Source: Phlebopus portentosus (taxonomy: Eukaryota; Basidiomycota; Agaricomycetes; Boletales; Boletinellaceae). Taken from it: a DNA stretch of 64,000 nucleotides. Positions within the stretch are counted from its first letter, which is position 1, and every line of letters begins with the position of its first letter. Positions 41,491 through 64,000 of the stretch are shown in pieces. Under the pieces are notes generated by a model. It ran no database searches. It saw only the letters and a program-made list of their open reading frames with translations, and was not told where the DNA came from. The stretch spans positions 1,013,004 through 1,077,003 of the forward strand of contig JAYXKI010000017.1 of the NCBI GenBank assembly GCA_037892935.1, in the 5' to 3' direction. The position numbers and the translations under genes are program-made.

Positions 41491-41559
41491 AATAGATCAA
41501 CTGGTATACGTAGTTGTCCATACGAGCAGTTTGTAGCCGAGTCAGAAGCATGGTTACGA

Positions 41560-43970
41560 TTCTCTTCATGTACTGGTCAAGTGCTGGCAGAGGAGTATAT
41601 CGACTATCGCTTGAAGCAGCTCAAAGCCCCAGGTATTATTGATTCTCGACGGGATTAGTTTCTGCTGCACAACGGCTAGAATGCTTGTGAATTGTCCTGT
41701 GCTTGCTAGTTCTGTGGCTTCTGTACGCAAGAAAGCTTTTAAGAGTCGAACGAGTCCAGGAATACTTCCTTTCTGCGCCCAGCTTGACGGTTGCAGAAGG
41801 AATGGCAAAAGCGACCGGTGATCGGCAGGAATTCCTCCGCGATGTAGTTCCAGCATCTGCAAGATAATTCGGAACACACGAAGAGTGAATTCTACCGAGC
41901 AGTCAGTATGTGGCCAGGTAGAAACGCAGGGGTGTTGATGACTAACGATCGATATCCTGTTGTAAGTGTAAGATAATCGTGAACAGTCCGAAAAGAGTTT
42001 TCTCGAAGGTCAAAAGCGACCCCGGAGACGTTGCGACGATAAACCTACACACGGGTCTAGTACGATTTTCGCGGGATCTCCGTGCCTACGAAGCTTATTA
42101 GAGCAGATATGCTTTCAAAATTTCGATTGCTCGGACTCCTCGAGATTGCTCCAAGAATGCCAATCAAACGTTGCAGAAGATTTTGATAAGTGGGACGAGC
42201 GTCGTACGAGCAGTGAGTATGACACGCATGACACCTACACGGAGTAATTCAGATAGAGCCGGAGGACAAAAGTCGCACACGCACATTTCATCAAGTAGTC
42301 ATTTTCCGCAATCTTCTCCAGCAACCAATCTGACTCGACTCTAGAAAGTATAGCATTTAGAATTTGAGGTGCAACCTCAGGCTCGCGAATGTCTTCTTGA
42401 TTAAACCTAGAATGACGTCGAGTAAAAATGCGGATATGGCAAGCAAAGCTTGTTACAGTAATTCGGAGTTGCAGTTGATGACGAGGATCCATTCGATAGT
42501 TCTTGCGGCGTATGTGTAAGTGACACAATTGGAAGTACCGAGATGAGTGGAAGAACGGAAACAAGCTGTTCCTTTGTGAGCTGCAATGATGCCATCGATG
42601 AGATTCTTCAAAGGTCAAGAGTTGTATAATAATCCTGCCTGGTTTCGGAAAGAGTACAGGAAGCGAATCGAATCGACTTGAAGGATCGGGTGCACGGCGC
42701 CAGAATCGGCTTGTAGGTCCTGAATACGTTTACGACATCAACCAGAGCATTTGTGCTCGTCACTCCTTGCTGCGAGATGATTTAAGACCATGGGAAGCAG
42801 ATCGACAGAATAAAGCATCTTATCTGAGCGGTAGCTCTAAGCATTGCGACAGCAGTGAGAAGATATACACTCCGATCTTTCCGCTTCCAGCTATCTTCAC
42901 CTCGTGGATCGGACGCGTGCTCCTGTAAGCCTAATCCAATCCATCTGACAACAATTTCTGTCGTAACTGCCTCATATCCGCTTGCAACAATGGCGCGCAG
43001 AACATCTGCAGCGGCTTGGTACCGTGACGTTCCTTCTGCAGTCAGACCCTCAGCAATCGCAGCCGAACTTGCACTAGCAAATGAGAGATCGAGACGCACA
43101 TATTCGAGAGGGTCGTCTTCAAACTGCTCTCCTTCATGAGTCCTCAGCGACACACTGGGTACGACAACGCCTTCAGCAAAGCCATCAACAGTCTCTCGGC
43201 TCTCGCCTCAATAGTTCCCAGAGCGTATAGCCGTACTAAGAAAATGGAGTGATTGGCTTACAAGGCCATCATAGGCGACCTCGAACCGCTGACCGCCGCT
43301 CAGAAGACCCAAAGAGCACGAACGAAAGCCTCGACTGAATTTGAGCTAATAAGCAGCTCCGGGTACCGGTGAGTATACGCTCCAGCGAGCTCAAAAATAT
43401 CGGTCTTTATTTGAGAAGAAACGCTAGCCATTGGTTCATCCGGATCAGTTTGCAGCTCAAGGGGGTCCCACAAAAGAAACCGGATAAAGTTTTCTGCGCC
43501 GAAGAACTCGGTGTGAGTGTCCTCAAGCGTCCTGGCACACAAGATCATAGAAAATATTGAGGAGGATGACTATTGCTTGTGCAACAGTCTCCGCGTCTTT
43601 GTTTGGAGACAACGGACTGTCGAGGAGCATCCCTGCAGTGTAACGGAGAACTCATAGGAACAGTTCTGCGAACTGGGCCGGGACGAAGTTGATGACTGTG
43701 CATAACTCGTCAGTGCGCATCTCAGACCGCCATCTTCCAAATATAGAGTGCACAGTTTCAAGAATTGAGAGATTGGTTGCGTATGATGCAAATGGAAGAA
43801 CCGAGATGGCGCAGGAGGAGCGGAAGAACGGAAACAAGCTCTTCCTTTGTGAGCTGCAATGATGCCATCAATGAGACTCTTCAAAGGACAAGAGTTGTAT
43901 AATAAGCATGCCTGGTTTCGGAAAGAGTACAGGAAGCAAATTGAATCGACTTGAAGGATCGGATGCACGG
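41560..43970 (-). pseudogene. CSE1 (exportin-2) fragments, minus array, copy B
   Basis: Pieces of the importin-alpha re-exporter CSE1 in order along the minus strand, with stops and frame changes. A piece of the LQVDSICFLYSFRNQ segment is joined to an upstream segment around DDELCTVINFV-like sequence. Then come MASVSSQIKTDIFELAGAYT, QFEDDPLEYVRLDLSFASAS, AAADVLRAIVASGYEAVTTE, WIGLGLQEHASDPRGEDSWK, EKIAENDYLMK, and finally LLPFLLQPSSWAQKGSIPGL with LIPSRINNTWGFELLQAIVD. These match the HEAT-repeat body of Cse1/CAS. Cse1 is normally an essential, single-copy nuclear transport receptor of about 960 residues; this copy is broken and lacks both ends. Confidence 0.75.
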
Positions 43971-44714
43971 CGCCGGAATCGGTTTGTAGGTCCTGAACAC
44001 GTTTATGTCGTCAACCAGAGCATTTGTGCTCATCACTCCTTGCTACCAGATGATATAAGACTGAGAGAGGCAGGTCGACAGAATAGAGCGCCTTACCTGA
44101 GCGGTAGCTCCGAGCGTCGCGACAGCAGTGAGTAGGTATACACTCCGGTCTTCCCGCTTCCAGCTATCTTCACCTCGTGGATCGGACGCGTGCTCCTGTA
44201 AGCTTAATCCGATCTATCTGAGAACAATTTCTGTCGTAATGCCACATATCCACTTGCAACAAGGGCACGCAGAACATCAGCAGCGGCTTGGCGCCATGTC
44301 GTTCCTTCCGCAGTTAGACCGCGAGCAATCGCAGCCGAGCTTGCAACAACAAATGAGAGATAGAGACGCACACATTCGAGAGGGTCATCTTCAAACCTCA
44401 GCAGCATACTGGGTACGACAGCGTCTGCAACAAGGTTATTGACCGTACTCTCAGTTCTCGATAATTCCCAGAGCAGATAGCCATACTAACAAACGGAGTG
44501 ACTGGCTTACGAGGCCATCATAGGCTACCCCGGACTGCTGGCCGCCACTGAGGAGACTCCAGAGGGCGCAAATGCAAAGCCACGACCAAATTTGAGCTTC
44601 AGACACTGGTGACTGTAAGGTGAGCTCAAGATAGTGGCCTTTCTTTAGGTCCAGAAGGAACACTGGCTGCCAACTATGTACATTCCAGATTTCAAATATG
44701 TGCAATGCCATCAT
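43910..44714 (-). pseudogene. CSE1 fragments, minus array, copy A
   Basis: A second, partial CSE1 copy upstream of copy B on the same strand. Recognisable parts are ALWSLLSGGQQSGVAYDGL, RFEDDPLECVRLYLSF, and GTTWRQAAADVLRALVASGY. Then follows a segment equivalent to the FRNQ block, which runs straight into copy B. Frame changes are needed throughout. Unit order shows that copies A and B arose by tandem duplication. Confidence 0.7.
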
Positions 44715-44879: not shown

Positions 44880-45440
44880 TGACTAGAGAGATTCTAACTG
44901 ATCTGACCTCAGATTTTAATTTTTCCACAGCAGTTTTGACTGGTTCTGATTTTATCAGATGTGACAAGCAGCTATAGTGACCAAGTGACTTGCCAGGTGT
45001 GGTGTGACCAAATGTGACATGTGATGAGTTATATACTTTTTTGTACAGAATAATTTTATAAGTATAATGGTAGCTGTCTAACTTTAGATAATCGCTCAGT
45101 TAAGTGGCAAATCAAGAAATACTTATTTGGACATAATATGTTATATATAAGTTATTTTAAATATAATTAAATTTATATTATATGATATAAAAACTAGAGT
45201 GATACTGAAAAGAGTAGAATTTAGGTGAGGCAAGAACTAAAGATATATAAAATAGAGTAAAATATAATTTAGAATATACTTAATATTATAAAAAGAAGTG
45301 TAACCCCAAAAGTAAAATAATAACACCCTCCAAAAAGGAAGGTATATATATATAAGTAACTTAAAATAATTACTTAATAAAGAAAAAGCTGACAAATATA
45401 AAATTACATAATATTTAATAATCAAATTACGTAATATCAG
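44880..45440 (+). repeat. Telomere-associated repeat, internal copy
   Basis: AT-rich noncoding DNA. At 44965-45036 (GTGACAAGCAGCTATAGTGA and onward) and at 45215-45440 (GTAACCCCAAAAGTAAAATA and onward) it matches the DNA just inside the telomere at 63245-63325 and 63655-63838, in the same orientation and order. It is therefore a displaced or older copy of the subtelomeric repeat. No genes. Confidence 0.75.
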
Positions 45441-45492
45441 GGTTATAGGGTGTGCTAGGATTGGGGTCTAGGGTTTGCTAGGGTTCCCCATT
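45441..45492 (+). repeat. Degenerate interstitial telomeric tract
   Basis: Follows directly after the internal telomere-associated repeat, just where the telomere follows the terminal copy. The sequence contains GGGTTATAGGG, TCTAGGG and TGCTAGGGTT, all a few changes away from TTAGGG runs in the same orientation as the end telomere. It looks like an eroded former chromosome end or healing site. Confidence 0.6.
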
Positions 45493-45582
45493 CGGAAGAA
45501 GGCACTGACCGACTCGGTGTGACAAAGCTATCATTTAGGAATTCCCTTATATAGCGAGATGTCTATAGTATACAAGAGACTT

Positions 45583-46420
45583 GTGTCGTGGACTCCACGA
45601 CACACTGAACACAGAACACGGCATCAAGTGAAAAAAATTGGATGCATAAGCAGTGTCGCTCAGCTCACGACGTGGAGTACATGGGTCAGGTCATGGACTC
45701 TGCAATTGCAACAAGACAATGCATGAGCCATGTCATGTCGTTCAGTCTACGACACGAAGTGTGAAGGCCAGGTCATGAAGAAGTCTACGACACGGAATGC
45801 ATGGGTTGTGTCCACGGTCTACGACATGGAGTGCTTGGGCCGTGTCCTTCCGTCCCCAACAAGGAGAGCATAGGACGTGTCGAGGAGCCTACGACATTGT
45901 GTGCAGGGCCGGGCGCAAACTCTACGACCCGGTCCGCATGCTCCACGTCGTGGAATGAGCGATATGGCCCACACACTCCATGTCAAAGAGTGGACAACTC
46001 GGCCTAAGTCCTCCGTGTCGTAGATCGAGCGACGTGGCTCATGCACTTTACGTCGTAAAGTCCACGATTCGGCCTACGCTTTTCGTGTCGTTGACTGAAC
46101 GACATATGCTATGAGCAATGCGCAGAGTCCACGATCTGGTCCCTGCACTCCACGTCGTAGGCTGAGCAACACCGCTTTTCACGCCACGTCGCAGACTACT
46201 GACCGACATGTGCTAAGCACTGTGTCGTATACTGAACGACACGGAAGTGCATAGGCCATTTCGAACTGTCTGCGACAAGAAGTTCATTAGACAGGCCGCG
46301 GACTCTCCAAACTGGCCTGCACAAACCGTGTGTGGAATAAACGACATATGTCATGCTCTCCACGTCGTAGCCTGAACGACAAAGCCTGTGCACTCAGTGT
46401 CGTAGAGTCCACGACACGAG
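45583..46420. repeat. Dense array of TGTCGT...ACGACA dyads
   Basis: Degenerate tandem units of roughly 50-70 bp, each carrying one dyad or a half-site. The first, at 45583-45603, is a perfect palindrome of two 10-base arms (GTGTCGTGGA and its complement) around one C. Clear full dyads are also at about 46397-46417 and near 46011, 46088 and 46219. Between 45660 and 45960 many units read like CTACGACACGGAGTGCATGG. No open frame fits; short frames in it differ between units. Confidence 0.8.
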
Positions 46421-46901
46421 TGCTCTTTGGTTACGAATTCTAACACTTGTGGATTGAACGACTCCGTCAATAAATACCATCATAGTTTTACAACTGTTAA
46501 ACTGAGGTTAGAAGATTTGGTCGCTTACGGGTGTGAATCCTTGTCATCAGAACAAGAACTCTGTTCAAAGCGTTAACCATGACTTGATGTAAGCTCTAAC
46601 TATTTAAGTGTTTCAAACGACCTTGTGCGAGGTGTCGTGAGTCCAACGACACAAGCAGAAAAGCTAAATGTAAGACAGTTCTAAGCAGCACCTGAACTAA
46701 TTGTATGATTGGCATAAATTGTAAGAACCCTGTTCTCCCTTCGTCGTGAGTTCAACGACACCAATGGCTCTCTAGTCTTGCTGAATTAACAAAAAAGTTC
46801 TGTCAAGTGGGCAATGATGAAATTCAAGGATCGTTGATCAAATGGCTGATTAAAACCTGAAATCTGAGCCCAACTTTTATTTCATATTTTTATCTAGTCA
46901 T

Positions 46902-47833
46902 TCAACGCGGTTTCCATTTCTGACCGTTCAACATTGCCTTGCCTCCCACAATGTCAAATCTATATTTGCTCTGTGGCAGACCTGTGAAACCAGGTTTTCG
47001 CCGCAGATGGCTGTAAAGGACGTAACCAGCGTCTGCGTCGCAAGCAGCATCTGTAAAATGAGAAATGCATAACAATTACAAAATCTCACAATCCAGAAGC
47101 AATTTAAAATACTTACAATCGAGTTCACTCTCAGTCAACTCCCTTGTCCAATCTTTCGCGCCCCTTGTTTTGTCCAGCTTAACCCCCAGAAAATGTTTGG
47201 TGAGTTCAGCTAGGGCGATCTCATGCGCGAAAGGTCGGATTTTTGGTGGTGAGAACCACCACCCCGGAGTTTGCAGCCGTCGACGAAGAGGGACTTTTCT
47301 TGAAGGCCATGCAGCCTCTACGCACTTCGCGACATATGACAGTTCGATGCAGGCCATGACGTCGACATTGAAGTCCCTCTTCAAGCACATTGCATCACCT
47401 ATTAGTTACAGTCAGTTAGCAAGAATGTCCGAGTCCAAAAAAATAAATAAAAATAAAAAATACTTCTTATCCCGACTCCAACCTTCTCGATCTCGGGATT
47501 GTTGAGAAGGTCAACGAGGCAACTCGGGAGGGTTTTGGGAGGCAGGCTCTCTAAAAGTGAAATAGATCACAAAAAAGTAATCAGTGTCTGAATTTAGGAG
47601 TTTGATCGAATGGAATTACCAGAGAACATCGCCATCTGAATGACAAGGACGACGTCGGACGTTGCAATCTGGAGAGTTGCAACAGAACTGGAAGGGCCAC
47701 CTTTTTCCAGATCAAACCCAATGTACCCCGGGGAAGACGAGACAAGCCGGAACACAGCTGGCTCGACATCTTCCAGCGTCGTGATGTACATGACGCCTGC
47801 CGCACGCACGGTGTATCTTCGGCGAAATCGAAT
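46902..47833 (-). CDS. WRN-type 3'-5' exonuclease (DEDDy)
   Basis: At least four exons. The first recognised exon has VMYITTLEDVEPAVFRLVSS and YIGFDLEKGGPSSSVATLQI, which is exonuclease motif I (the D and E of FDLE), then TSDVVLVIQMAMFS. The next gives PEIEKVGVGIRK, spliced to GDAMCLKRDFNV (motif II), VDVMACIELSYVAKC and FLGVKLDKTRGAKDWTREL. Splicing at a GTAAGT after SELD gives motif III, YAACDADAGYVLY, the exact WRN-exonuclease pattern with the catalytic Asp and Tyr. It ends GKAMLNGQKWKPR. All four acidic residues appear present, so an active nuclease is expected. Relatives degrade DNA 3'-5' and act in recombination and telomere upkeep, or occur as stand-alone fungal proteins of unknown role. 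The 5' end is not settled: an acceptor at 47833 implies an earlier exon. Confidence 0.8.
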
Positions 47834-48049
47834 CTAAACAGCAACTAAGAAATTGTTGATAAAGAAAAAAACTGATACTTGCGTTCCCAAACGAAAAGCA
47901 CATGGTATTGAGATTATGATGGAAAAAACATACACTGAGAATCTATCTTTTGTACTCGGATACGTTAGTCGACTCATGTCGTTGATTGAACGACGCCGTA
48001 TGCTTCTCCTGCGGTTCTCTTCACAGCAAAAATGAAAAAGATCGGGAGG

Positions 48050-48900
48050 AGCGCTTAAAGGGCTTCTAAGTAATGTGGTCCATTCTCCGACATCAAAGAA
48101 GTACTAGGAATCACTGACATCGCTCGGCGTCTATGAAGTTCTTCTTATCCAGTGTCGTTGATCGAGCGACATTCTTTTTGTGAAAATTTTATAGGATAGG
48201 AGTGTCGTGAATCCAACGACAACAGTAGACGCTCGCTCTTCACACCAACTTTTTACAGATTCACTTCCTAACCCGGATCAGATGTCGTCATCGAGTCACC
48301 AATGGAAGATGAGAAATTTTTCACGGGCGTCTAAGTGGTCTGGAACCAAACCAATGTCGTCAATTCGACGACATGCGCAGTCCGACATCAAAGAAGTACA
48401 AGGAATCACGGACATCAATTGAGAAAACTGAGCAAGCGAGCGTCTATAAGACTTTTTATCTAGCGTCGTTGATCGGTCGACACTGCGCAGTTCTATGACT
48501 AATTTTCAATCTCCTCTTGGTGACTAACTTTCACTTGATCGGAGTGTCGTGAATGCATCGACGCACGTAGACGCTCATTCAGTTCTTGATGCGATCAGTT
48601 GTCGTCGTCGAGTCACCGATGAGAAAGTGAGAAATTCTTTTATGGGCGTCTAAATGGTCTGGAACTAAATGAATGTCGTCAATTTAACGACATGCGCAGT
48701 CGAGTGAGCGTCTAGAAGACTTTTTTTATCCAGTGTCGTTGATCCGTCGACATTGCGCAGTTCTATGATTAATTTCCGCTCTTCACGCGAAGTTCAGTCA
48801 TTTACTCACCCGGATCTAAATGGTTTCAAGTCACTAGAAGACCAGCGGGGTCTTTCTCTAGACTGAGGCTTCTCTTCACATTGACGCTACAATTTTTATA
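48050..48900 (+). repeat. Tandem repeat of about 270-315 bp carrying dyads
   Basis: Three diverged direct copies. Shared stretches include GGGCGTCTAAGTGGTCTGGA (48326) and its near copy at 48643, and the CGTCTATAAGACTTTTTATC block at 48441 with its copy at 48709. Each repeat brings two or three of the TGTCGT dyads. No coding capacity seen. Confidence 0.7.
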
Positions 48901-49169
48901 GGCGCCTAAAGGAAGTGTCGCTAGCTCAACGACACTTGTCATCTTTCCATTCTGGCTCTTGCCGAGTCATTTCTCTCCCGGATCAGTGTCGTATCAAGTA
49001 TGTAACATCCTTTTCTCAACTGCGTTTCTCTTCACAGGAAAGATTCCGTGAACGTTGGGTGTCTCGATCAATGGGAGTGCTAGTCTCAGAGTGTCATGAT
49101 GTCACCCCGACGACGCACCACCCCCCTATTATTCTTTTCTTCACAAACAAATTATTTTACGTGTTTACT

Positions 49170-49596
49170 CAGTTGGGACCAAACCCTATGTCGCTCAAGG
49201 ATGGGGAGGTCTTCGGTATCTCCAATGGTACCATGCTATCAAAGAGACTACCAGGAACCAGAACGACTTCCTCGCGTTCCGAAATCAAATTTTGAAAGTC
49301 ATCGACCAGAAGTTCACATGGCTTCCTCTAGCGCAGAAGGAACGACCGTTCGATATGCGACAGACCACACGGCAAGGCGTTTATCCTGCTTCAAGAATCA
49401 ATGGTCCGGCAATTGTTCTTGTTTTCAATCCGCAGTACAAGTCGCGTATGGATTACACAAACGAGGTGTACTTCCCTAGGAAGGGAACGGTACTTGGTAA
49501 CGTGAACAGCAACGCTCTTGTGAAAAGGACCAGGTACGAGGAGGAAGAGGAGGAGGATGAAGACGATCAGCGTTACCAATCGCGCGCAAGGTATTA
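49170..49596 (+). CDS. Unknown protein, last exon(s), acidic tail
   Basis: An open frame starting after a probable acceptor TTTACTCAG at about 49171. It reads VGTKPYVAQGWGGLRYLQWY, then TRNQNDFLAFRNQILKVIDQ and RINGPAIVLVFNPQYKSRMD, then YFPRKGTVLGNVNSNAL, and ends in a Glu/Asp run. Composition and codon regularity suggest a real exon. Earlier exons should lie between 48900 and 49170 but I could not place them. I do not recognise the family. The gene is enclosed on both sides by TGTCGT dyads. Confidence 0.5.
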
Positions 49597-50815
49597 AGGT
49601 CAGATCTGCATTCTCTTTGAACAAGACCAATGTCGTTCCACTCACGACAACGTGTTTGGGCCCCGAACATTTCTCTGTCTTACTCCCTTCTCAAGAAGCC
49701 ACCACGCTCTATTGCACTCTCGTTTCATGAACCCCCACTCACTATACCAGTGTCGTTGTAGTGACGACATGTTTGTGTAGCTTATTTTATAAACATCCCC
49801 CCACTCAATAGTTGAATTGACACTAGTGTCGCTACAGCAACGAAGGCCTTGTCTGCGTGATCCTATGTCCTGACCAACTTCATATTTCGAAGACTGTTAC
49901 AGAGGCGAAGAAAAGAACTTCACAAAGTGAAGTGAACTACGACACCGTTGTGGCAGATGAAACTTTTATTAATGCCAATTATCTCGTGCACTACCCAGTG
50001 TCGTTACAGCTACGACACCATGGCAAATGCAACATTTTTTTTAGTTTTGGTGTATTCGTCTCGTGCACTGCTCAGTGTCGTTAGAGCAACGACACTGTGG
50101 CGGGTGCATCTTTTTTTAGTGAAAATCATCTATGTGCCCAGTGTCGTTAGAGTCACGACACTGTGGCAAGTGCAACTTTTTTTAGTGCCAATCCTTATCT
50201 CGAAATTACTGATCTAATGTACCTTCTCTTATCCACATTGTTTTATATCAGGACTTCAAAACAGGAGGACAAACGTATGTATGTCGCTAAATCCACGACA
50301 CGGGTAACACAACTTATGAATCAAAGGATTTCTCAAATTCAGCATGTCGTTTGTTTATCGATAATTCTGACAATCTGTAGTTGACTATTCTCGGATAATG
50401 ACGCGTGTTTTAGCCTGGGCGTCTATCTATTTTGGGAAGCGACGGTCGCCTATCGTACATGTCGTCACCTCCACGACGCCACGGCTTTTACATCTACTTC
50501 TTTTCTAGGAGATTCTTCACTTCAGACGCCCACAGAATGCTCACAGAACTTCTTTTCTGAGAAGTCTTCCCTGATCTGACATCATCGGCCATACAACAGA
50601 ACGAGTCATTTTGTCGATCTAGGCCCATTTTAGCAAATCTATTAATTTCCGCTTGCTTCGATATTGATGGAAGCAGCGGATGTCAACCGCCTGCCGACAA
50701 GAAGAGTCCGTTAAGCGCTAGGTCTAGCCAGTTTGGACACTCTTCACATCAAGAACCAACTTTTCAGTCACGAGGTTTCGCTTCTTTTATTTGGTTCACC
50801 AAACAAACTCTCATG

Positions 50816-50823
50816 TATATAAG
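50816..50823 (+). promoter_or_regulatory. TATA box of the SNF2-type gene
   Basis: TATATAAG about 80 bp upstream of the ATG at 50902, in a C/T-rich leader setting. The spacing suits a TATA box with a short 5' UTR. Confidence 0.6.
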
Positions 50824-50901
50824 GGGAGACAGAAAAGCCCACGCCCCATCAGTACCTACTTTTGCTTCTAACTTCACCGCTTTGATCTACCTGCTTACAT
50901 C

Positions 50902-53900
50902 ATGTCTTCCTCTGCACTGCAATTGACCTGGAAAGTCGGCTTTGCTTGCCTCTATGTAGAGGCCCGTACCAGACCCAGCAGCATGTACTCAGAAGACGTT
51001 TGGGAGTTGTCGCAACCTGCCCCTTGGTGTTTCGAACCATTTAGAGACCATTTCGGGATTCCAAAGGAAAGCTGGCCATACGATGGCTTCATCGACTCCG
51101 TAACGAAGGAGAACGATCCGATTCTGAAAGGCACTGAAGCGGCGAACCTTACCCAGTTCAAAAAACTTCGAGCATTCCTCGATGCGTTCGAGGAGGCAGT
51201 GAAAAGCCATGATTCAGGCAAGCTCCAAACAGTTATCAAGATCAAACCGGCCGCAACGAGCGGTAATACATACTACGAAGGCGCGAAAATTTTCCAAGAT
51301 GTATTTGCGAAGATGTGGACAAAGGCAAAGCTTTCATTCAAGATTGACGCGAAGCTGGAGGAGTGGAATGGGCTTCCGTGGCAACTCGCGACCAAGCAGG
51401 GCTACAGTTGGAACCCAGCTGAGAAGGTCAAGGGCAAATTGGTACGTGGTCCTCACTCATATTAACAAGAATCCATCTTACTTGTCCTTAACAGGATCCT
51501 CTCCGCGATCCGGCGAAGAAAACGATAGGGACAGCTTCCGTATCACACCTGCACCCTCAGCTCATGGAATTCCTTCTCGGACCAGAAGCATTATCTGATG
51601 ACCTCGAGTCGGTCCTTTTCCCTCTCGGCTTTCTAGCGAGCACTGTCATACAGCAGGCCTGGGATCGCCTTTTGAAGAAAGGAAAGCGTATGCTAAAGGT
51701 CGCGGACAAGATGGAAGGCGACGTGACAAACACGAAAAACGATCTGATGGCACTCGGGAAGGACGGCAACCGTAAGGAAAAAGCCCGGCTTGTTCGAAAA
51801 CTCATGGCCGAGGTCCAGAAGCTGAAGGACAACAAATCGAGGTTCGTTGCCGGACGCGAGAAGGAACAGTTGAATCAAATGGAGGGCGACATGCTCGGAA
51901 TCGTGAAGTTCGTGAAAGGAGAAAAAGGTGAGCATCTTAATTTCACTATTCAGACCATTCTAACGGTCGTATCTAGATGCTGAGCTGACAGGTAAGATGG
52001 GCTGATCAGGAGTATTGTTGTTCTAACGGCCGCTTGTTGAAACCAGGCCTGGGAAAAGAACTCGAAAAGATTCTTGAGACTATGCATGATTCCCAGACAG
52101 TTCGCGAGCTTGAGAAAGCTTACGTGGAAACATTTGAGCGGGTCCAACCTACAGCGCAGCAAATCTTACGAGAGGTCGAGGAGACAGGCTCAGGCTGGAT
52201 AGACGAACACGGTGACATCGGTGTCGAAGAGTTCCGTAACAGCACCGTAGACGAACTGCGCGGGTTACTCGGGATATCCCCAAATGATGTTCGGTTTCCT
52301 TACATGAATCAACTTATTCACGACAATGCACTTGCTCCATCAGAGATCAAGAATTTCGACGAGCTGGATAACGACGCAGGCCTGACTGAGGAAGAAGCGG
52401 TGGAAAAGTATCAATTGCGACGACTGGAACCTGATTGGCACCAATACGTGGGCGTAGCATCGGCCTTCAGGCGTATGTTTCGTGGTCAGAACGTCCTTCT
52501 TGCAGACGGAGTCGGAGTTGGGAAGACATTGCAAGCATTCATGATGATGAGCTTGGTCAGATTATACCGTGCTCAAAGTAGTGAGTCGGTAATCTCATCA
52601 GGAGAATGACAACCTACTGACTAGTCCAACTAAAGCCGACACGAAGGCGTTTCTTCCCCCATTAGGTATGTCACAGAATCACTGATGATTGATCTGATCT
52701 AACTTCACATTTCTTCTAAGGTGAGTGCGTCGTGTCTCCAACAACACGGCTGTTTCATTGACCCAGTATGTAAAACTTCGCTCGTGATCTTTAGGTGAGT
52801 GATGTCGCTAAGCAAAAGACATGCTATGCTGACTTTCGTTTTTTGTTCTATTCTTTCATACTATCTTACTTTACTACAGGTAAATAATGTCGTCTAGACT
52901 ACCATACCGCTCTTACTGACAGACGAATGTTCAGTTCCCGAAGACGGCAAGCTGGGCTGGAGACCGAAATCCACGTTGCCTTCTGGTCATATCCTTGTCA
53001 TTGTTCCTACTACACTCGCGGCTCAATGGGTGACCGAAGCAAGGCGATTCCTGAAGAATAGCCTTTGGAACATATTCGTCTATCCATCGAAGAGAGCAGA
53101 CATTCCTGACTTTTGGGAAAAATTATGGAAAGCGAAGATGGAGGACGAAGCTACGTATACTATCTTGATCTGCACTTATCCGGTACGTTTCAAAAATTCA
53201 TGGGGTTCGTGTTCGTTGCCTGACTGTCAACCCAAGGCTATTCAAGAAGACGCGAAGGTCGCATTGCCCGACAAGAAGGCTCGAGATTACGGCCCAAACC
53301 AGATGCCCGACATGAAGCCCCGTGCGTCGCAAACAGTGTTCGGGAGAGAATGGAGTCTGGTGTTTGTTGACGAGGCTCACGTTCTTCGCTCTGAGAACCA
53401 AATGCTTCGAGCCGTGTACGGGCTCCGATTCAGGACTGCCTCACTGGTGTTGATGACGGCGACCCCTCTACACAACGCAGAGAAGGTATGTGACACTTGT
53501 CGATGATTCGGTGACGACATTGATGTTGGTCTTCTATTCTAGGACTTGGTTTCGCTGGGCATCGCACTCGGTGTCGAGCATGTTGATGAACTGACCCGGG
53601 AGGAGAAAGATCTTGCCCGCGAGATCGGACGCGTCAACCGATCGAAAGAATACAGTGATTTAGACGAAGAGATTAGAGAGGCGGCTCGTAAAGCAATAAT
53701 TGGGGAAGCTTCGTTTTCCAACTACTATTCGGCTCTCAACAGTCAAGGCAGGGAGGCAGCGAAGCTACTCGTCCGACGGCGACACGTCCTTCAAATGCGC
53801 GAATATCTCATAGAGTATGTCATACGAAGGACAGCAGAGTCCAAACGCCTCGATGGGGCATTGATCAGCGGGTTGGCGGCGCCAGAGATCATCCACATTA

Positions 53901-56900
53901 AAGCAGCTATGGAACCAGAAGAGCGTCGGGAATTCGACGCCGAGGCGCGCAGAGTTGCAAATGTGTAAGTATGCAAAATCGTCTCTCACCTCCTTTGAGC
54001 TAACGGACGGTTTCATTTGAAGAGATGACACTTCGACAAGCGTGGATCTGCTCACAAACGTGAGTCGCTCGTGAATATCCAAACAATGCACCACTAAACC
54101 GTAATGAACAGAGTTTCTTTTCTGAGTATCGCTGCAGGATTGGATGCCGAGGAATAAAAATGGGCGAATCCTCTTATCCAGAGTATAAAACCCTGCGAGA
54201 CTTTGAGGAGAGGTCGAGCACGAAGTGGAAGCTGATCATTAAACTCCTGATGGGTATCTTGCGCAATGACGAAGGACCCTTCCCCTACGTGGACGAGGAC
54301 GACAAACTAGTCCTCCCTGATGTGAACGAAGATCCGAAGGCGAAGTGCAAAGTTGTCATCTACGTCGAGTTCGTCAAGACACTTCCAGCTCTAGGGAGCG
54401 CTCTGAAGCTACACGGCTTGGATTATCTGGAATGCAAGGGAAGCATGACTCCGAAGAGGCGTGCTGAGGTCCTCCGGAAGTTCTCTGATCCCAGAGTTAA
54501 CCATCGCATCCTAATCCTCTCTGCCGTTGGCACCATTGGTCTGAATCTGCATGTGGCGCAGCATCTCATATTTGCAGACATCGGGTGGACGGGTCAGGAG
54601 AGGACTCAAATCATCGGCAGACTTCATCGAAAGCCTCAAAAGAATTTGGTTCATGTTTACCTGCCTTGCATCGAGAATACGACGGATGAAATCTTAAATA
54701 GGATGTCTATGACAAAGGAGCGCCTCCTGAATATTTTTGTCGGTGAGTTCGGGTTACCAAGGACGGCATCATTGCATAGCACTCACTCTTGATAAGGTAA
54801 ATACGACGAAGACGAAGAAGACGAGATTGAAGATTCCGAGGAAAGTTCTTGGTCGTCCAGTCAGCGACCAAAACGGAAGGCAGGAGAACCTGCATCACAG
54901 GTTTCAGCAAAACGTTCCCGGCAAGGAAGCAACAGGTCTACTCCGTCAACTGTGCCAGTTTCGAGCACTCAGACAGAGGCATCCGGTAGATCTGACGAGG
55001 AAGCAGATGTTCATACCGTGGAGCCATTGACAGCTTTGCTAGTCGAGAAATCTTCGGCGAAAGTGAAGAGGAGAATAAAGACGAAGGCGAGAGCTTCACC
55101 TGATTTTGTCTCAATGGATTACGATGACGCGCCGATTTACGACGACGTTGATATGGATACAAGGTCGGGACATCGCGATGAAGAGGCAAGAAAAGAGCAT
55201 GTCGAGGATACGAAAACACGACGCGGGAAGAAAACCATCACACCGAAGGTCAACCGTACTGCGATGACACAAGCGACAGCTTTGCTAGTCGAGAAATCTT
55301 CGGCGAAAGTGAAGAGGAGAATAAAGACGAAGGCGAGAGCTTCACCTGATTTTGTCTCAATGGATTACGATGACGCGCCGATTTACGACGACGTTGATAT
55401 GGAATCGGGACATCGCGATGAGGAGGCAAGAAAAGAGCATGTCGAGGATACGAAAACACGACGCAGGAAGAAAACCATCACACCGAAGGTCAACCGTACT
55501 GCGATAACACAAGCGACAGCTTTGCTAGTCGAGAAATCTTCGGCGAAAGTGAAGAGGGGAATAAAGACGAAGGCGAGAGCTTCACCTGATTTTGTCTCAA
55601 TGGATTACGATGACGCGCCGATTTACGACGACGTTGATATGGATACAAGATCGGGACATCGCGATGAAGAGGCAAGAAAAGAGCATGTTGAGGATACGAA
55701 AACACGACGCGGGAAGAAAACCATCACACCGAAGGTCAACCGTACTGCGATAACACAAGCGACTCCGCGTTCTGTAGCACAGCCAGCCGCGAAGAGCGCC
55801 GTTCGTACTACGACAGCGCAGTCGACAGCGCGTTCCTCCTCGAAAGCAGCCGTCGCAGGCTTGACACCACAGTCACAGCAAAAGCGAACGACGACGCCGA
55901 GGGACGTACAGACCGCGACAGCGTCATCCTCTGACGATAACTCGGGCTCGGACTCGGATGGTTCAGATTCGGGTAAGGAACAAGTCGTATTGTTGCGACC
56001 TCGCCGGCGCACGAGCTCACTTCCGTATGACGCGCGAGACCCCGATATATTCCCAGAGTGCTACGCCATCAGTGATGGCCGGAATTCGTACACACCAGAA
56101 CCGGAATCATCACCTCCAACTGAGGATTCTTACGATATGTCGAAGAAGGCCAACACCAGCAGCGTTTTGTCTTCCGAGGGCCAAAGCCAGAGCAACGGCT
56201 CGAAGGGCGCTGCAGAAGACGAAGAGGAAGACGAAGAGGAGGCTGGGTCTGACGAGGATGAGGATGAGGGCCACAGCACTGCACAACAGACCCACGAATC
56301 GAACAAGGGCGAAACGAAGGCGGGTGATAAGGAGGAGTCTGAATCCAGCGACAGCGAGGAAGAGGAACCTGAGTCTGACGAGGATGAGGACAAAGGCCAG
56401 AGCAATGATGCGAAGATCACTACACGACAGACCCACGAATCGAGCAAGGGCGAAACGAAGGCGGGTGATAAGGAAGAGTCTGAATCCAGCGATAGCGAGG
56501 AAGATAACATGCCACTAGATAAGTCAGTGATCAGATTATGTGCTTGCTTGGGAACGATTTATAAATCCTCAACAGGCTCCGTCCCAAAACGGGCAGGAGC
56601 GGTGATTATGATGATTTCGGCGGATTTGATGACGGTGGATTCGACTATGACATTGCTGCGTTTGATGACCATATTGATGTGCAAGAGCAAAAGGCAGCGT
56701 CCGCTAAAGCAACTACGAAGGGCAAGCAGAAGCAAGCGGAAAATGCACTTGCTGGACCCGGGCCCACTACAGTTGAGATACAAAGGAACAAGCAGAAGCA
56801 AGTGGAAAATAGCTGCGCTGGACCTAGTCGGGTTCTGGAAGACAAGAGAAAGAAAGGAGGATTGACGGCTGGCCATATGTGGAAACTGAAGAATAAAATG

Positions 56901-56966
56901 AGGCCAGGTCTTGAAGAAGCTCCGAAATTAACAAAGGCTGCAATTCGGGGTCGTAAAAGGAAGTAG
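50902..56966 (+). CDS. SNF2-type DEAH helicase/ATPase with repeat tail
   Basis: A large gene with about ten introns, starting MSSSALQLTWKVGFACLYVE. The first 500 residues are family-specific, with a Lys/Glu coiled segment. Helicase motifs follow in order: motif I LLADGVGVGKTLQA, then VIVPTTLAAQW (Ia), VFVDEAH (II), LMTATPLHN (III), VVIYVEFVKTLPAL (IV region), LSAVGTIGLNLHVA (V) and QIIGRLHRKPQ (VI). The set is complete, so ATPase activity is likely. After NIFV an intron joins a long disordered tail: Ser/Arg-rich, then three near-identical 80-residue repeats, acidic Glu/Asp repeats, a Gly/Asp/Phe patch (GDYDDFGGFDDGG) and a basic end (AAIRGRKRK). SNF2 proteins move or remodel nucleosomes or other DNA-bound proteins. 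A subtelomeric position is common for helicase families in fungi. Motif I has Val-Gly-Val-Gly where Met-Gly-Leu-Gly is common. Confidence 0.85.
52670..52933 (+). other. Long intron region in the SNF2-type gene
   Basis: Between a probable mini-exon (PTKADTKAFLPPLG, ending about 52664) and the exon starting PEDGKLGWRPK lies about 260 bp of noncoding DNA, several times longer than other introns here. It contains two degenerate TGTCGT dyads. Confidence 0.55.
55030..55765 (+). repeat. Three 240/246-bp in-frame tandem repeats
   Basis: Units start at 55030, 55276 and 55516, each with TALLVEKSSAKVKR...MDYDDAPIYDDVDM...VNRTA. Units 1 and 3 are 246 bp. Unit 2 lacks six bases (two codons, DTRSG reads ESG). 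Only a few substitutions separate them, so the duplication is recent or homogenised. The frame is kept. Confidence 0.95.
56247..56508 (+). repeat. Two acidic in-frame repeats
   Basis: Two copies of about 125 bp encode SDEDEDEGH...QTHESNKGETKAGDKEESESSDSEEE and a variant with KGQSNDAKI inserted. They form the acidic part of the helicase tail. Confidence 0.85.
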
Positions 56967-57493
56967 AATTATTAGTAGGTAAGCTTTGTACATAGACGTT
57001 TGTAGACTACGGTTGCGATCCTGCTTGGGACGAATATAATGTCAAGGCATTCATTGCGAAGAGGTTACTTAGGTCAAAGTCAGATGATTACACTACAGGC
57101 AAATACCGGTCCTTTGAACACCCAATACAAAACACTTGACATTAATACATAGAATCACTGCATATTGGAGGTCCCTAACATATACTTGTGTAGCCGTACG
57201 TACCTAAGATAAGGAAATCTATGCAAAAATCTGTCTTACATCACACAGAAAATTTGTGTAGAACAAAATACATTAGGAACACAGATATACGCATTTCTGT
57301 GTAGATGTGCTTGATTAGATTTTGAGAGTTGATATATAAGAACTAGACTAGATTTGTATTTGCGAGCGAGACTGCGAGTGACGAGTGTCACACGAACTTG
57401 GATGCATTTGTCGGCTTTGTCTCTTGCCACCACTAGTACTCTATCGACCCCCAGCACCTACAAATCATCTCGTCCCTGCTTCATCCACCTCAT
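56967..57493. other. Noncoding, nothing recognised
   Basis: Spacer between the helicase stop and the Hsp70 fragment. No gene seen. Confidence 0.4.
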
Positions 57494-58069
<576 letters not shown>

Positions 58070-58080
<11 letters not shown>

Positions 58081-59338
58081 AAGTTATTCACAGTCCTCAA
58101 CTTCGTCCTGGCCCAGTTCGCAGAACCGTTCCTACAAGTTCTCCGTTACACTGCAGGGATGCTCCTCGACAGTCCATTGTCTCCAAACAAAGACGCGGAA
58201 ACTGTTGCACAAGCAATGGTCGGTCCGGGGTCGCCTAGGATGGCCTCGTAAGCCAGTCACTCCGTTTTCTTAGTACGGTCTCCCCTCTGGGAATTTTCGA
58301 GGAATTTTCGAGAGCCGAGAGACTATCGATGGCCTTGTTGAAGGCGTTGTCGTACCCAATGTGTCGCTGAGGACGCATGAAGTAGAGCAGTTTGAAGGCG
58401 ACCCTCTCGGATATGTGATGTGCGTCTCGATCTCTCATTTGCTAGTGCAAGATCGATTGCGATGCTAGTGCAAGTTCGGTTGCGATTGCTGACGGTTTGA
58501 CTGCAGAAGGAATAACACGGCGCGAAGATGATGTAGATGTTCTGCGTGCCCTTGTTGCAAGCGCATATGAGGCAGTTTACGACGGAAGCGGGAAGGCCGG
58601 AGTGTATATCCTCTCACTGCTGTCACGACGCTCGGAGCTACCGCTCAGGTAAGGTGCTCTATTCTGTCGACCTGCCTCTCTCAGTCTTATATCATCTCGT
58701 AGCAAGGAGTGATGAGCACAAATTCTCTGGTTGATGTTGTAGTCTTCTTTTCGCGAAACGTGTTCGAGGACCTACAAGCCGATTCCGGTGCCGTGCATCC
58801 GATCGATTTGATTTGCTTCCTGTACTCTTTCCGAAAACCAGGCAGGTTTATTATACACCTCTTGACCTTTGAAGAGTTTCATCGACGGCATCATTGCAGC
58901 TCACAAAGGAACAGCTTGTTTCCGTTCTTTCACTCCTGTGTCATTTCGGTTCTTTCAATTGCGTCACTTATACATACGCCGCGACAACTATTGAACGTCT
59001 CCTCGCCATCAAGCGCAACTCCCGATTACCATATGAAGCTTTGCTCGCCATCGCTGTATCACACATCTCGACTCAACGTCTAATCAAGAAGACACTTGCG
59101 AAGTTGCACCTCAAATTCTAAATGCTGTACCTTCTAGAGTCGAGTCAGATGGGTTGCCGGGGAAGATTGCGGAAAATGACTACTTGATGAAATGTGCGTG
59201 TGCGACTTTTGTCCTCCGGCTCTATCTGAATTACTCCGTGTAGGTGTCAAGCGTGTCATGCTTACTACCCGTACGACGCCCGTCCTCACCTATCAAAATC
59301 TTCTGCAACGTCTGATTGGCATTCTTGGTGCAATTGCG
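58070..59338 (+). pseudogene. CSE1 fragments, plus array, block 1
   Basis: From the Hsp70 junction the sequence follows CSE1: [20 protein letters not shown], then [18 protein letters not shown]. It next runs through broken versions of the FEDDPLEYV segment, the DLQADSGAVHPI segment, the TKEQLVSVL segment, EKIAENDYLMK, and YQNLLQRLIGILGAIA. Stops and frame changes occur every 100-200 bp. Confidence 0.7.
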
Positions 59339-60000
59339 ACGACACGGCACCAAGCCGCTGCAGATATCTCGTGTGCCCTTGTTGCAAACGGATGAGGTCG
59401 TTACGACAGAAATTGTTCTCAGATGGATTGGATTAGACTTACATGAGTACGCGTCCAACTCATGTAGAGCAGTTTGAAGGCGACGCTCTCGGATATGTGC
59501 ATCTCAATCTCTCGTTTGCTAGTGCAAGCTCGGCTGCGATTGTTTGCAGTCTGACTGCAGAAGGAACGACGCGGCGCCAAGCTGCAGCTGATGTTCTGCG
59601 TGCCCTTGTTACAAGTGGATATGCTGCAGTTACGACAGAAATTGTTCTCAGATGGATCGTATTAAGCTTACAGGAGTACGCGTCCGATCCACGAGGTGAA
59701 GATAGCTGGAAGCGGGAAGACCGGAGTGTATATCTTCTCGCTGCTGTCGCAACGCTCGGAGCTGCCACTCAGGTAAGGTGCTCTATTCTGTCGACCTGCC
59801 TCTCTCAGTCTTATATCACCTGGTAGCAAGGAGTGACGAGCACAAATGCTCCGATTGACGTCGTAAACGTGTTCAGGACCTACAAGCCGATTCCAGCGCC
59901 GTGCATCCGATCCTTCAAGTCGATTCGATTTGCTTCCTGTACTCTTTCCGAAACCAGGCAGGTTTATTATACTCCTCTTGACCTTTGAAGAGTCTCATCG
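59338..60000 (+). pseudogene. CSE1 fragments, plus array, block 2
   Basis: At about 59338 the GILGAIA segment jumps back to the earlier CSE1 segment RHQAAADISCALVANG. It then repeats FEGDALGYVHLNLSFASASS, AAADVLRALVTSGYAAVTTE and WIVLSLQEYASDPRGEDSWK, the best preserved stretch of the array, followed by the DLQADSSAVHPI segment. Confidence 0.7.
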
Positions 60001-60590
60001 ATGGCATCATTGCAGCTCACAAAAGAACAGCTTGTTTCCGTTCTTCCACTCCTCCTGCGCCATCTCGGTTCTTCCGATTGCGTCATATGCAATCAATCTC
60101 TCAATTCTTGAAGCTGCGCACTCTATATTTGGACGATGGCGGTCTGAGATGCGCACTGACGAGTTATGCATAGTCATGAACTTTGTCCCGGCCCAGTTCA
60201 CAGAACCGTTCCTACAAGCCCTCCGTTACACTGCAGGGATGCTCCTCGACAGTCCATTGTCTCCAAACAAAGACGCGGAGACTGTTGCACAAGCAATGGT
60301 CGTCCTCCTCGATATTTTCTATGACCTTGTCTGCCAGGACGCTTGAAGACGCTCACACCGAGTTCTTCGGCGCGGAAAACGGGATGTTTATCCGGTTTCT
60401 TTTGTGGGACCCCCTTGAGCTGCAAACTGATCCGGACGAACCAATGGCTAGCGTTTCTTCTCAAATAAAGACCGCTATTTTTGAGCTCGCTGAAGCGTAT
60501 ACTCATCGGTATCTGGAGCTGCTTATTAGCTCAAATTCAGTCGAGCGGTGGTCAGCGGTCTGGGGTCGCCTATGAGGCCTTGTAAGCCAA
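60000..60590 (+). pseudogene. CSE1 fragments, plus array, block 3
   Basis: The TKEQLVSVLPLLLRHLGSS segment jumps at about 60085 to an earlier CSE1 segment, IFGRWRSEMRTDELCIVMN. This continues into FVPAQFTEPFLQALRYTAGM, VVLLDIFYDLVCQD and MASVSSQIKTAIFELAEAYT. The same jump occurs in the minus array near 43800. Confidence 0.7.
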
Positions 60591-62095
60591 TCACTCCGTT
60601 TTCTTAGTACGGCTATCCGCTCTGGGAATGATCGAGAGATTTTCGAGAGCCGAGAGACTGTCGACGGCCTTGTTGAACGCGTTGTCGTACTCAATGTGTG
60701 GCTGAGGACTTATGAAGTAGAGCGGTTTGAAGACGACCCTCTCGAATATGTGCGTCTCAATTTCTCATCTGCTAGTGCAAGTTCGGTTGCGATTGCTGGC
60801 GGTTTGACTACAGAAGGAATGTCACGGTACCAAGCCGCTGCAGATGTTCTGCGCGCCCTTGTTGAGAGCGGATATGAGGCAGTTACGACAGAAATTGTTG
60901 TCAGATGGATTGGATTAGGCTTACAGGAGCACGCGTCCGATCCACGAGGTGAAGATAGAAGCGGAAAGATCGGAGTGTATATCTTCTCACTGCTGTCGCA
61001 ACGCTTGGAGCTACCGCTCAGGTAAGATGCTTTATTCTGTCGACCTGCCTCCTCATTTTTTAATCACCTCGCGGCAAGGAGCGACGAGCACAAATGCTCT
61101 GGTTGACGTCGTAAACGTATTCCAGGACCTACAAGCCGATTCCGGCGCTGTGCATCCGATCCTTCAAGTTGATTCGATTCGCTTCCTGTACTCTTTCCGA
61201 AACCAGGCAAGTTCATTATACTCCTCTTGACCTTTGAAGAGTCTCATCGACGGCATCATTGCAACTCGCAGAGGAATAGCTTGTTTCCGTCCTTCCGCTC
61301 CTCCCGTGTCATCTCGGTTCTTCCAATTGCGTCACTTATACGTACGCCGCGACAACTATCGAACGGATCCTCGTCATCAAGCGCAACTCCCAATTACTAT
61401 AAGAAGCTCCGCTTGCTATCGCTGCATCCCAGCTCAACGTCATTGTAGGTCTAATCAAGAAGACACTCGCGAAGTTGCACCTGAAATTCTAAATGCTGTA
61501 CTTTCTAGAGTCGGGTTCAGGTGGGTCGCTGGAGAAGATTGCGGAAAATGACTACTTGACGAAATGTGCATATGCGACTTTTTTTGTCCTGTGGGCTTTA
61601 TCTGAATTACTCCGTGTAGGTGTCATACTCATTGCCCATACGACGCTCGTCCCAACCTATCAAAATCTTCTGCAAAAATGTTTGATTGGCGCTCTTGGAG
61701 CAATCGCGAAGATTCCGAGCAATCGAAAATTTGACTAGTACATGTTTGAAAGCATATCTGCTCTAACGAGGTACGTGTAAAAAATCGTTCTAGACCTGTG
61801 TGTAGATTTACCGTCGCAACGTCTCCGGAGTCGGTTTCGACCTTTGAGAAACATTGTTTCAGACCGTTCACAATCATCTTACTACAGGACATCGACCGTT
61901 AGTCATCTACACCCCCTGCATTTTTCCTGGCCACATACTGACTGCTCGGATAGAATTCACTTCTTATGTGTTTCAAATTATCTCGTAGATGCTGGAGCTA
62001 CATTGTGGAGAAATTGCTGCCGATTACTGATTGCTTTTACTATTTCTTCTTCAACCATCAAGCTAGGCGCAGAAAGGAAGTATCCTTGGTCTTGA
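60590..62095 (+). pseudogene. CSE1 fragments, plus array, block 4
   Basis: Continues in CSE1 order: FEDDPLEYVRLNFSSASAS, YEAVTTEIVVRWIGLGLQEH, then a frameshift after GED. Next come VNVFQDLQADSGAVHPILQV, EKIAENDYLTK, the FESISALTRYV-like segment near 61745, and the FEKHCFRPFTIILLQDIDR region near 61845. It ends at about 62090 in the segment equivalent to LLPFLLQPSSW of the minus array. Truncated before the C-terminal half of CSE1. Confidence 0.7.
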
Positions 62096-63893: not shown

Positions 63894-64000
63894 TTAGGCT
63901 TAGGGTTAGGCTTAGGGTTAGGCTTAGGGTTAGGGTTAGGCTTAGGGTTAGGCTTAGGGTTAGGGTTAGGCTTAGGGTTAGGTTAGGCTTAGGGTTAGGG
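63894..64000 (+). repeat. Telomere, mixed TTAGGC/TTAGGG repeats
   Basis: Seventeen hexamers and one 5-mer (TTAGG): seven TTAGGC and ten TTAGGG. They are ordered as TTAGGC followed by one or two TTAGGG. The G-rich strand points to the right edge, as expected for a right-hand chromosome end. TTAGGG is the usual fungal telomere unit; the regular C variant is not. Confidence 0.9.

What the first reader, a model, noticed from the sequence alone, without database searches (positions are those of the whole stretch)
45583..50478. Dozens of copies of a short dyad TGTCGT-N7-9-ACGACA over 5 kb
The same 19-22 bp inverted repeat recurs at least 20 times, first packed in an array, then spaced every 50-500 bp through spacers and introns around an exonuclease gene, an unknown gene and a helicase. 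The arms are well kept while the centre varies, which is what a dimeric DNA-binding protein or a hairpin-forming element would leave. I noticed no such cluster elsewhere in the window. It could be an operator array, a nucleation site for silencing, or a family of mobile mini-palindromes.
Basis: partly seen in the sequence, partly recalled or inferred. Interest (0 to 1): 0.85.

Follow-up and report, generated by a model that had tools for sequence, protein, structure and literature searches.

The report
Palindrome sites confined to fungal chromosome ends
A mushroom (probably Sanghuangporus) carries, at a few chromosome ends, a repeated block of DNA studded with one short palindrome that has no exact copy elsewhere in its genome, and the palindrome's two arms are kept about as well as protein-coding sequence, as expected of a docking site for a paired DNA-binding protein.

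Summary
The dyad is real and far beyond chance. The spacer is always 7 bases: 14 exact copies in the window, 23 with at most one mismatch; shuffles give 0.05 exact. All 84 exact copies in the 38.4-Mb genome lie in six chromosome-end regions (196 kb); at one mismatch there is no excess elsewhere. They sit in a Y'-like subtelomeric block running from a degenerate internal telomere seam (45,440) to the telomere (64,000), found on five ends (twice on one), with a remnant on a sixth. It encodes a WRN-type exonuclease, a 974-aa orphan protein (deleted here, intact on C16) and an SNF2-type ATPase under purifying selection. Dyads occur in spacers and introns, none of 23 in exons; a 35-bp array opens the block. 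Between copies the arms vary as little as exons (3.7% against 3.9%; other non-coding 9.1%), the centre more (15.1%). Arms show no co-variation, yet unselected centre and flanks are largely palindromic (RTGTCGTTGANTSAACGACAY). That fits a homodimeric DNA-binding protein's site better than a hairpin or mobile mini-palindrome. The factor and its effect (silencing, boundary, maintenance) are unknown. New variant of a known kind.

The parts
45440..45489 (+). degenerate telomere-like seam at the centromere-proximal end of the block (old chromosome end)
   Evidence: sequence; similar left-end sequence joined to differing acceptor DNA in C17, C1, C3 (both units), C16 and C8; C2 is truncated and joined to telomere repeats
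45584..46416 (.). dyad array, period 35 bp: 19-bp dyad plus 16-bp polar spacer, spacer orientation mostly reversed in the second half
   Evidence: autocorrelation peaks at lags 70 and 35, runs of 35-bp spacing, spacer motif in both orientations; C16 lacks exactly one 35-bp unit; exact dyads at 45584, 45736, 46086, 46223, 46398; one mismatch at 45878, 46363
46633..46760 (.). two dispersed dyads (46633 exact, 46742 one mismatch) beyond the 3' end of the exonuclease gene
46905..47833 (-). DEDDy 3'-5' exonuclease gene of WRN type, four exons in my model
   Evidence: PF01612 E 2.4e-8; best solved relatives are Werner exonucleases 2e6l and 2fbt; splice giving the YAACDA motif
47977..48934 (.). dispersed dyads between the exonuclease and the middle gene: 48203, 48355, 48674 exact; 47977, 48153, 48734, 48916 one mismatch; 48074, 48464, 48545 two
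   Evidence: several lie in local direct repeats
49195..49597 (+). 3' remnant of the 974-aa orphan gene; the rest, with upstream DNA (6,656 bases on C16), is missing in this copy
   Evidence: intact gene on C16, offsets 14736-18585 of the stretch starting at C16:1320000; junction compared
49631..50478 (.). dispersed dyads between the middle gene and the helicase: 49631, 49751, 49999, 50076, 50142 exact; 50282, 50460 one mismatch; 50345 two
   Evidence: 49999, 50076 and 50142 are a local triplication
50902..56960 (+). SNF2-family ATPase gene, several exons (end by eye)
   Evidence: PF00176 E 8.9e-14, PF00271 E 1.4e-13; dN/dS 0.02-0.14 in 15 pairwise comparisons of six copies
52728..52746 (.). 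degenerate dyad in a helicase intron (my reading of the gene)
   Evidence: 2 mismatches, PWM score 15.2 bits
52803..52821 (.). degenerate dyad in a helicase intron (my reading of the gene)
   Evidence: 2 mismatches, PWM score 14.1 bits
63894..64000 (+). chromosome-terminal telomere repeats

Best explanation
The dyads are binding sites, consensus RTGTCGTTGANTSAACGACAY, for a dedicated sequence-specific DNA-binding protein that docks as a symmetric dimer on the two TGTCG half-sites across a 7-base centre that it reads only weakly. The sites belong to a Y'-like subtelomeric block that probably spreads between chromosome ends by recombination at telomere-like seams and carries its own exonuclease, orphan protein and SNF2-type ATPase. 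Shown here: the exact sites are confined to the block, non-coding, largely palindromic and constrained. Inferred: that a protein binds them. More loosely inferred: that the bound protein builds a nucleoprotein domain over the block (a silencing relay or an anti-silencing boundary beside the telomere) that lets the block's genes and copies persist.
For: 84 of 84 exact sites in the genome lie in six chromosome-end regions totalling 196,226 bases; reversed-pattern control 1 in the genome. With up to 1 mismatch: 220 in the genome, 150 of them in those six regions, leaving 70 against 93 for the reversed control, so no excess elsewhere. Variable columns among the five other copies: arms 10 of 270, exons 45 of 1142, other non-coding 282 of 3099, centre 24 of 159 (arm against other non-coding Fisher p 0.0015, against 10-bp flanks 0.023); random placement of the mask in non-coding DNA gives arms this low in 0.54%, centre this high in 1.8%, and the difference in 0.02% of 10,000 trials. 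CpGs in arms vary in 6 of 50, in exons 23 of 85, in other non-coding DNA 83 of 206. Positions 0 and 20 are mirror images and the centre is largely symmetric (0.95% of column orders and 0 of 5000 letter shuffles do as well) in 39 non-redundant dyads. No arm co-variation in 45 dyads. 0 of 23 (C17) and 0 of 30 (C16) dyads in exons.
Against: No protein has been identified and no binding or chromatin data were available. Copies differ from C17 by only about 2-5%, so the constraint test rests on 10 variable arm columns and on sites chosen in C17. Symmetry is not perfect: at position 12 the 39 dyads have G 0.41 and C 0.36 where a full palindrome wants C. Four of the ten co-variation pairs hardly vary. 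Some dyads multiplied by local duplication, so sites are not all independent. The centre changes faster than neighbouring DNA (15.1% against 8.3% in 10-bp flanks, p 0.02), which plain binding does not explain. One end of the 6.7-kb deletion falls inside a sequence three mismatches from a dyad, which could hint at breakage there.
Confidence: 0.6

Rival explanations
1. Replication or maintenance sites: the block is a selfish chromosome-end element that encodes its own dyad-binding factor (for example the orphan 974-aa protein) and uses the sites for amplification, tethering or partition, as viral episomes use arrayed palindromic sites.
For: Exact sites occur only in the block regions; a packed array next to the seam plus dispersed copies; the ATPase is under purifying selection; the orphan gene is intact on C16 and its product has 4 differences in 947 aa from a database protein of S. 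sanghuang.
Against: No known domain was found in the three exon stretches of the 974-aa protein scanned (no Pfam hit at E 0.1); the structure model is too poor to use (mean pLDDT 33.6). Copies that lack most of the gene keep their dyads, so any factor would act in trans. No relative in the viral contigs.
Confidence: 0.15
2. Mobile mini-palindromes: the dyad is itself a tiny mobile or copy-prone element that landed repeatedly in non-coding DNA of the block and is absent from exons by selection.
For: Many dyads have unrelated flanks (flank information at most 0.22 bits beyond the outer R/Y); one presence/absence difference among copies (48,153).
Against: No exact copy outside the block regions in 38.4 Mb and no one-mismatch excess there; arms stay constrained while the centre drifts, which a passive insert would not show. 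Target-site duplications were not tested systematically.
Confidence: 0.08
3. RNA or cruciform hairpins: the dyads act as stem-loops in transcripts or extruded DNA.
For: Five dyads that I picked out of 23 fold as single DNA strands at -6.1 to -10.6 kcal/mol, z -3.4 to -6.1; some dyads are in introns.
Against: No compensatory pairing: at all ten position pairs the number of complementary pairs is at or below the shuffle mean, to rounding, in 45 dyads; four pairs hardly vary and are uninformative. Low folding energy follows from any palindrome.
Confidence: 0.08
4. Passive satellite: the motif is only a fossil of a 35-bp repeat that expanded and was scattered by duplication, with no present function.
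For: Tandem 35-bp array and local duplications; C16 differs by exactly one unit.
Against: Arms and centre evolve at different rates, also in dispersed dyads alone (9 of 186 against 14 of 110 columns variable). The array's spacer motif is near dispersed dyads no better than at random places: best of 14 letters 4 to 7 mismatches at 16 dispersed dyads, 2 to 5 at the 7 array dyads.
Confidence: 0.09

Closest known systems
Y' elements of Saccharomyces cerevisiae
   Same: Subtelomeric block next to the telomere, interstitial telomeric sequence at the inner edge of many copies, tandem copies on one end, a conserved helicase-like ORF, a short tandem repeat (36-mers there, 35 bp here); features taken from passages of PMC13177704.
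   Different: The block here is 18.5 kb rather than 5.2-6.7 kb, has an SNF2-type ATPase, a WRN-type exonuclease and an orphan protein, and carries a single palindromic site family in its non-coding DNA. Sequence homology to Y' was not tested.
Telomere-linked RecQ helicases (TLH) of fungi, including Ustilago maydis and Agaricus bisporus var. burnettii
   Same: Multi-copy helicase-superfamily gene at chromosome ends (passages of PMC7473861, and of PMC10532341).
   Different: Here the enzyme is SNF2-family, not RecQ.
STARs: Tbf1 and Reb1 site clusters in yeast X and Y' elements
   Same: Clusters of short protein sites in subtelomeric repeats, described as insulators (passage of PMC13177704).
   Different: From memory, those factors also bind elsewhere in the genome. 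Here all exact sites of the genome are in the block regions. No factor is known here.
EBNA1 sites in the family of repeats of Epstein-Barr virus (recalled, no call)
   Same: About twenty copies of a palindromic site in an array of roughly 30-bp repeats, bound by a dimer.
   Different: Viral episome, unrelated sequence; a comparison of layout only.

Membership tests
Y'-type subtelomeric element | Lies between the chromosome body and the telomere, on several ends | tested here: met
   C17, C3, C16, C1 and C2 ends, each terminating in telomere repeats; the copy count is a lower bound by the tool's own note
Y'-type subtelomeric element | Interstitial telomeric sequence at the inner edge or between tandem copies | tested here: met
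   Degenerate telomere-like seams in C17, C1, C3 (twice), C16, C8, and telomere repeats at the truncated C2 copy
Y'-type subtelomeric element | Encodes a helicase-like ORF kept by selection | tested here: met
   SNF2-type ATPase, dN/dS 0.02-0.14 on 7-22 synonymous and 1-6 other differences per pair; one stop codon in the outer C3 copy
Y'-type subtelomeric element | Contains a functional replication origin | not testable with these tools
   needs an assay
Y'-type subtelomeric element | Sequence homology to yeast Y' | not tested
   no comparison with yeast Y' was run
Telomere-linked RecQ helicase (TLH) | RecQ-family helicase domain | tested here: not met
   Pfam SNF2-rel_dom and Helicase_C; best solved relatives are Chd1 and other SNF2 remodellers, over the C-terminal helicase lobe
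Site array for a symmetric dimeric DNA-binding protein | Palindromic consensus at positions not used to select the sites | tested here: met
   Positions 0/20 mirror each other; centre symmetric, 0.95% of column orders do as well; position 12 is G or C rather than C
Site array for a symmetric dimeric DNA-binding protein | Half-sites constrained, spacer length fixed | tested here: met
   Spacer 7 in all 14 exact sites of the window; arms 10 of 270 against other non-coding 282 of 3099 variable columns
Site array for a symmetric dimeric DNA-binding protein | A protein that binds it | not testable with these tools
   no convincing DNA-binding domain in the block's proteins scanned
RNA or DNA hairpin family | Compensatory base changes in the stem | tested here: not met
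   No excess pairing over shuffles at any of ten position pairs in 45 dyads; four pairs hardly vary
Mobile mini-palindrome (MITE-like) | Copies outside the host block | tested here: not met
   No exact copy outside the six ends; no excess at one mismatch
Mobile mini-palindrome (MITE-like) | Target-site duplications | not tested
   only flank base composition was examined
Mobile mini-palindrome (MITE-like) | Empty sites | tested here: inconclusive
   one presence/absence difference, at 48,153, among six aligned copies; gain or loss not decided

The most novel reading that the evidence does not exclude
The block is a self-serving chromosome-end element that encodes both the protein that reads the dyads and the ATPase and exonuclease that act on the DNA so marked: a telomere-bound replicon with its own recognition code rather than host subtelomeric repeats.
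Probability: 0.14. Interest if true: 0.85.

Novelty: new variant of a known kind. Interest (0 to 1): 0.6.

Why it matters
Subtelomeric helicase blocks are known from several fungi, but what marks and maintains them is unclear. Here one exact site code is confined to the block genome-wide and appears to be kept by selection, which gives a direct handle: find the protein that binds it and ask whether it silences, insulates, amplifies or anchors chromosome ends in a mushroom. It also shows that a subtelomeric ATPase of the SNF2 type, beside a WRN-type exonuclease, can sit where RecQ helicases sit in other fungi.

Tried and rejected
Hairpin covariation: tested, not found. CpG decay as the source of the arm pattern: the block shows no CpG depletion (observed/expected 1.05-1.07). 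Virus origin of the orphan protein: 8 stretches of viral contigs matched its patterns but none encodes a relative. Structure of the orphan protein: model too poor (mean pLDDT 33.6), so no fold search was run. A profile search with the five-sequence alignment returned only P0001 (only the 7995 candidates sharing most words were scored). Rearrangement breakpoints at dyads: one end of the 6.7-kb deletion and a minority of indel edges touch dyads; too few to claim fragility. Promoter use: dyads lie upstream, downstream and inside introns alike, so plain promoter operators explain only part. Species: inferred from one protein (P0001), not proven; DNA around the homologous genes of other species was not available here. 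Other chromosome ends: only 3 kb of the starts of C4-C7 were read; that blocks are absent from the remaining ends rests on whole-genome searches whose counts are lower bounds. Papers: PMC7473861, PMC10532341 and PMC13177704 were seen as passages only. The main texts of PMC10219462, PMC8537844 and PMC10803629 were searched by term, not read: 'telomere', 'helicase' and 'subtelomer' (in PMC10803629 'subtelomeric') do not occur. Other papers were seen only as search listings.

Odds moved by 0.02 or less.
Full report
WHAT IS THERE. The window is the end of contig C17 of a 38.4-Mb genome in 23 contigs and finishes in telomere repeats. A database protein annotated in Sanghuangporus sanghuang matches the block's orphan protein with 4 differences in 947 residues, so the organism is probably that mushroom or a close relative. 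The dyad TGTCGT-N7-ACGACA occurs 14 times exactly, all between 45,584 and 50,160; shuffles of the window give 0.05. The spacer is 7 in every exact case. With one mismatch in the 12 arm bases the window has 23, with two 37, of which 29 lie in 45,480-50,600.

GENOME-WIDE. 84 exact sites exist in the whole genome, against 1 for the reversed pattern. I read the ends of C17, C3, C16, C1, C2 and C8 (196,226 bases in all) and counted 14, 29, 15, 13, 10 and 3: all 84. At up to one mismatch the genome holds 220, of which 150 lie in those regions; the remaining 70 do not exceed the reversed control of 93, none of which falls in those regions. The wider form with the outer G and C scores 82 against 4 with up to one mismatch.

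THE BLOCK. 45,440-64,000 is a chromosome-end block shared at roughly 92-99% over its main segments with C3 (two units in tandem), C16, C1 and C2; the C8 end has a diverged remnant of the array start, and none of the block's genes was found there (the searches give lower bounds). The inner edge is a degenerate telomere-like sequence, similar in six copies and joined to differing acceptor DNA: one or two telomere units on C1 and on the inner C3 unit, A/T-rich DNA on C17, C16 and C8, and subtelomeric DNA broken off inside on the outer C3 unit. The C2 copy lacks its inner part and is joined to telomere repeats. This is the layout expected when ends are copied by recombination at telomere-like seams; that mechanism is inferred, not shown.

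GENES. From left to right: an exonuclease on the minus strand, PF01612, closest by sequence to Werner exonucleases among solved structures, with the YAACDA motif at a splice junction; the 3' remnant of a 974-aa gene; and an SNF2-type ATPase. On C16 and on the inner C3 unit about 6.7 kb more is present; on C16 it contains the rest of the 974-aa gene with open exons; on C3 my splice did not succeed. C17, C1, C2 and the outer C3 unit share one short junction, one side of which lies in a sequence three mismatches from a dyad. I read it as a deletion because the gene has relatives over much of its length in other fungi: 23-28% identity in Lyophyllum, Hypsizygus and Coprinellus. The ATPase has two relatives at 29-30% in S. 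weigelae; the other 12 of 14 hits are weak. Across 15 pairs of copies the ATPase shows dN/dS of 0.02-0.14 on 7-22 synonymous differences each; the outer C3 unit has one stop codon. My exon models are by eye.

ANATOMY OF THE DYADS. The first 0.8 kb is a 35-bp tandem array (autocorrelation peaks at 70 and 35): a 19-bp dyad plus a 16-bp spacer whose orientation mostly reverses halfway. C16 lacks exactly one unit. After it, dyads recur at about 50-700 bp within the spacers, without the array's spacer motif; in the intact 974-aa gene 6 of 30 C16 dyads are in its two introns, and two degenerate ones lie in helicase introns. None of 23 (C17) or 30 (C16) overlaps an exon, although exons are 6,554 of 11,521 and 9,082 of 18,121 bases. 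Several dyads lie in local duplications, so they are not all independent; dropping six such second copies and adding C16 and C8 sites gives 39. In these, positions never used for selection are symmetric: outer G 0.56/A 0.33 against C 0.56/T 0.33, and a centre TGANTSA, with the symmetry reached by 0.95% of column orders and by none of 5000 letter shuffles. The exception is position 12, G 0.41 and C 0.36; in the 23 closest window sites C leads there with 14.

CONSTRAINT. In the aligned copies (sites chosen in C17, variation counted among the other five): arms 10 of 270 columns variable, centre 24 of 159, 10-bp flanks 33 of 400, other non-coding 282 of 3099, exons 45 of 1142. Placing the same mask at random in non-coding DNA gives arms this low in 0.54%, centre this high in 1.8%, and the contrast in 0.02% of 10,000 trials. 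Array and dispersed dyads both lean that way (1 of 84 against 10 of 49; 9 of 186 against 14 of 110). CpGs in arms vary in 6 of 50, in exons in 23 of 85, in other non-coding DNA in 83 of 206. Within dyads the two sides do not co-vary: complementary pairs are at or below the shuffle mean, to rounding, at all ten positions, though four of these hardly vary. So the sequence of each arm is kept; nothing shows that the pairing is.

INTERPRETATION. Palindromic sequence preference, fixed spacing, constrained half-sites, a free centre and avoidance of exons are what sites of a symmetric DNA-binding dimer look like. The fast centre remains unexplained. What the bound protein does is open; by analogy with yeast subtelomeres, where clusters of protein sites insulate or relay silencing (passage of PMC13177704), a chromatin role is my first choice, and maintenance or amplification of the block my second.

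KNOWN AND NEW. The block works like a Y' element and meets the layout features tested, but is not shown to be homologous. It is not a RecQ-type telomere-linked helicase locus. I saw no description of such a site family in the listings of the searches run, which cover only openly licensed papers. I rate it a new variant of a known kind.

Noticed in passing
63894-64000 and the ends of C1, C2, C3, C5, C8, C16: The telomere is a 12-base repeat, TTAGGC-TTAGGG alternating: 101 of 108 neighbouring six-base units alternate over seven ends; the starts of C4, C6 and C7 show no telomere. A literature search on this listed no basidiomycete paper on such a repeat.
   Followed up: partly
G000:C2:1903376-1903391: A single interior match to one and a quarter units of the C-rich telomere strand, a possible telomerase-RNA template; only 2 registers were searched and its surroundings could not be read.
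   Followed up: no
57300-61800 (and inverted at 41500-44600): Degenerate, repeated pieces resembling Hsp70 (by eye) and Cse1 (PF08506 E 8e-9 for 59867-60346) fill the DNA between the ATPase gene and the telomere; related pieces recur in inverted orientation just inside the old chromosome end.
   Followed up: no
55029-55763: Three 246-bp tandem repeats inside the charged C-terminal part of the ATPase gene; copy number appears to differ between blocks.
   Followed up: no
63394-63625: A roughly 220-bp stretch of the terminal sequence has many dispersed relatives (77-88%) across the genome and is missing from several other end copies, so a small transposable element seems to have landed next to the telomere.
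   Followed up: no
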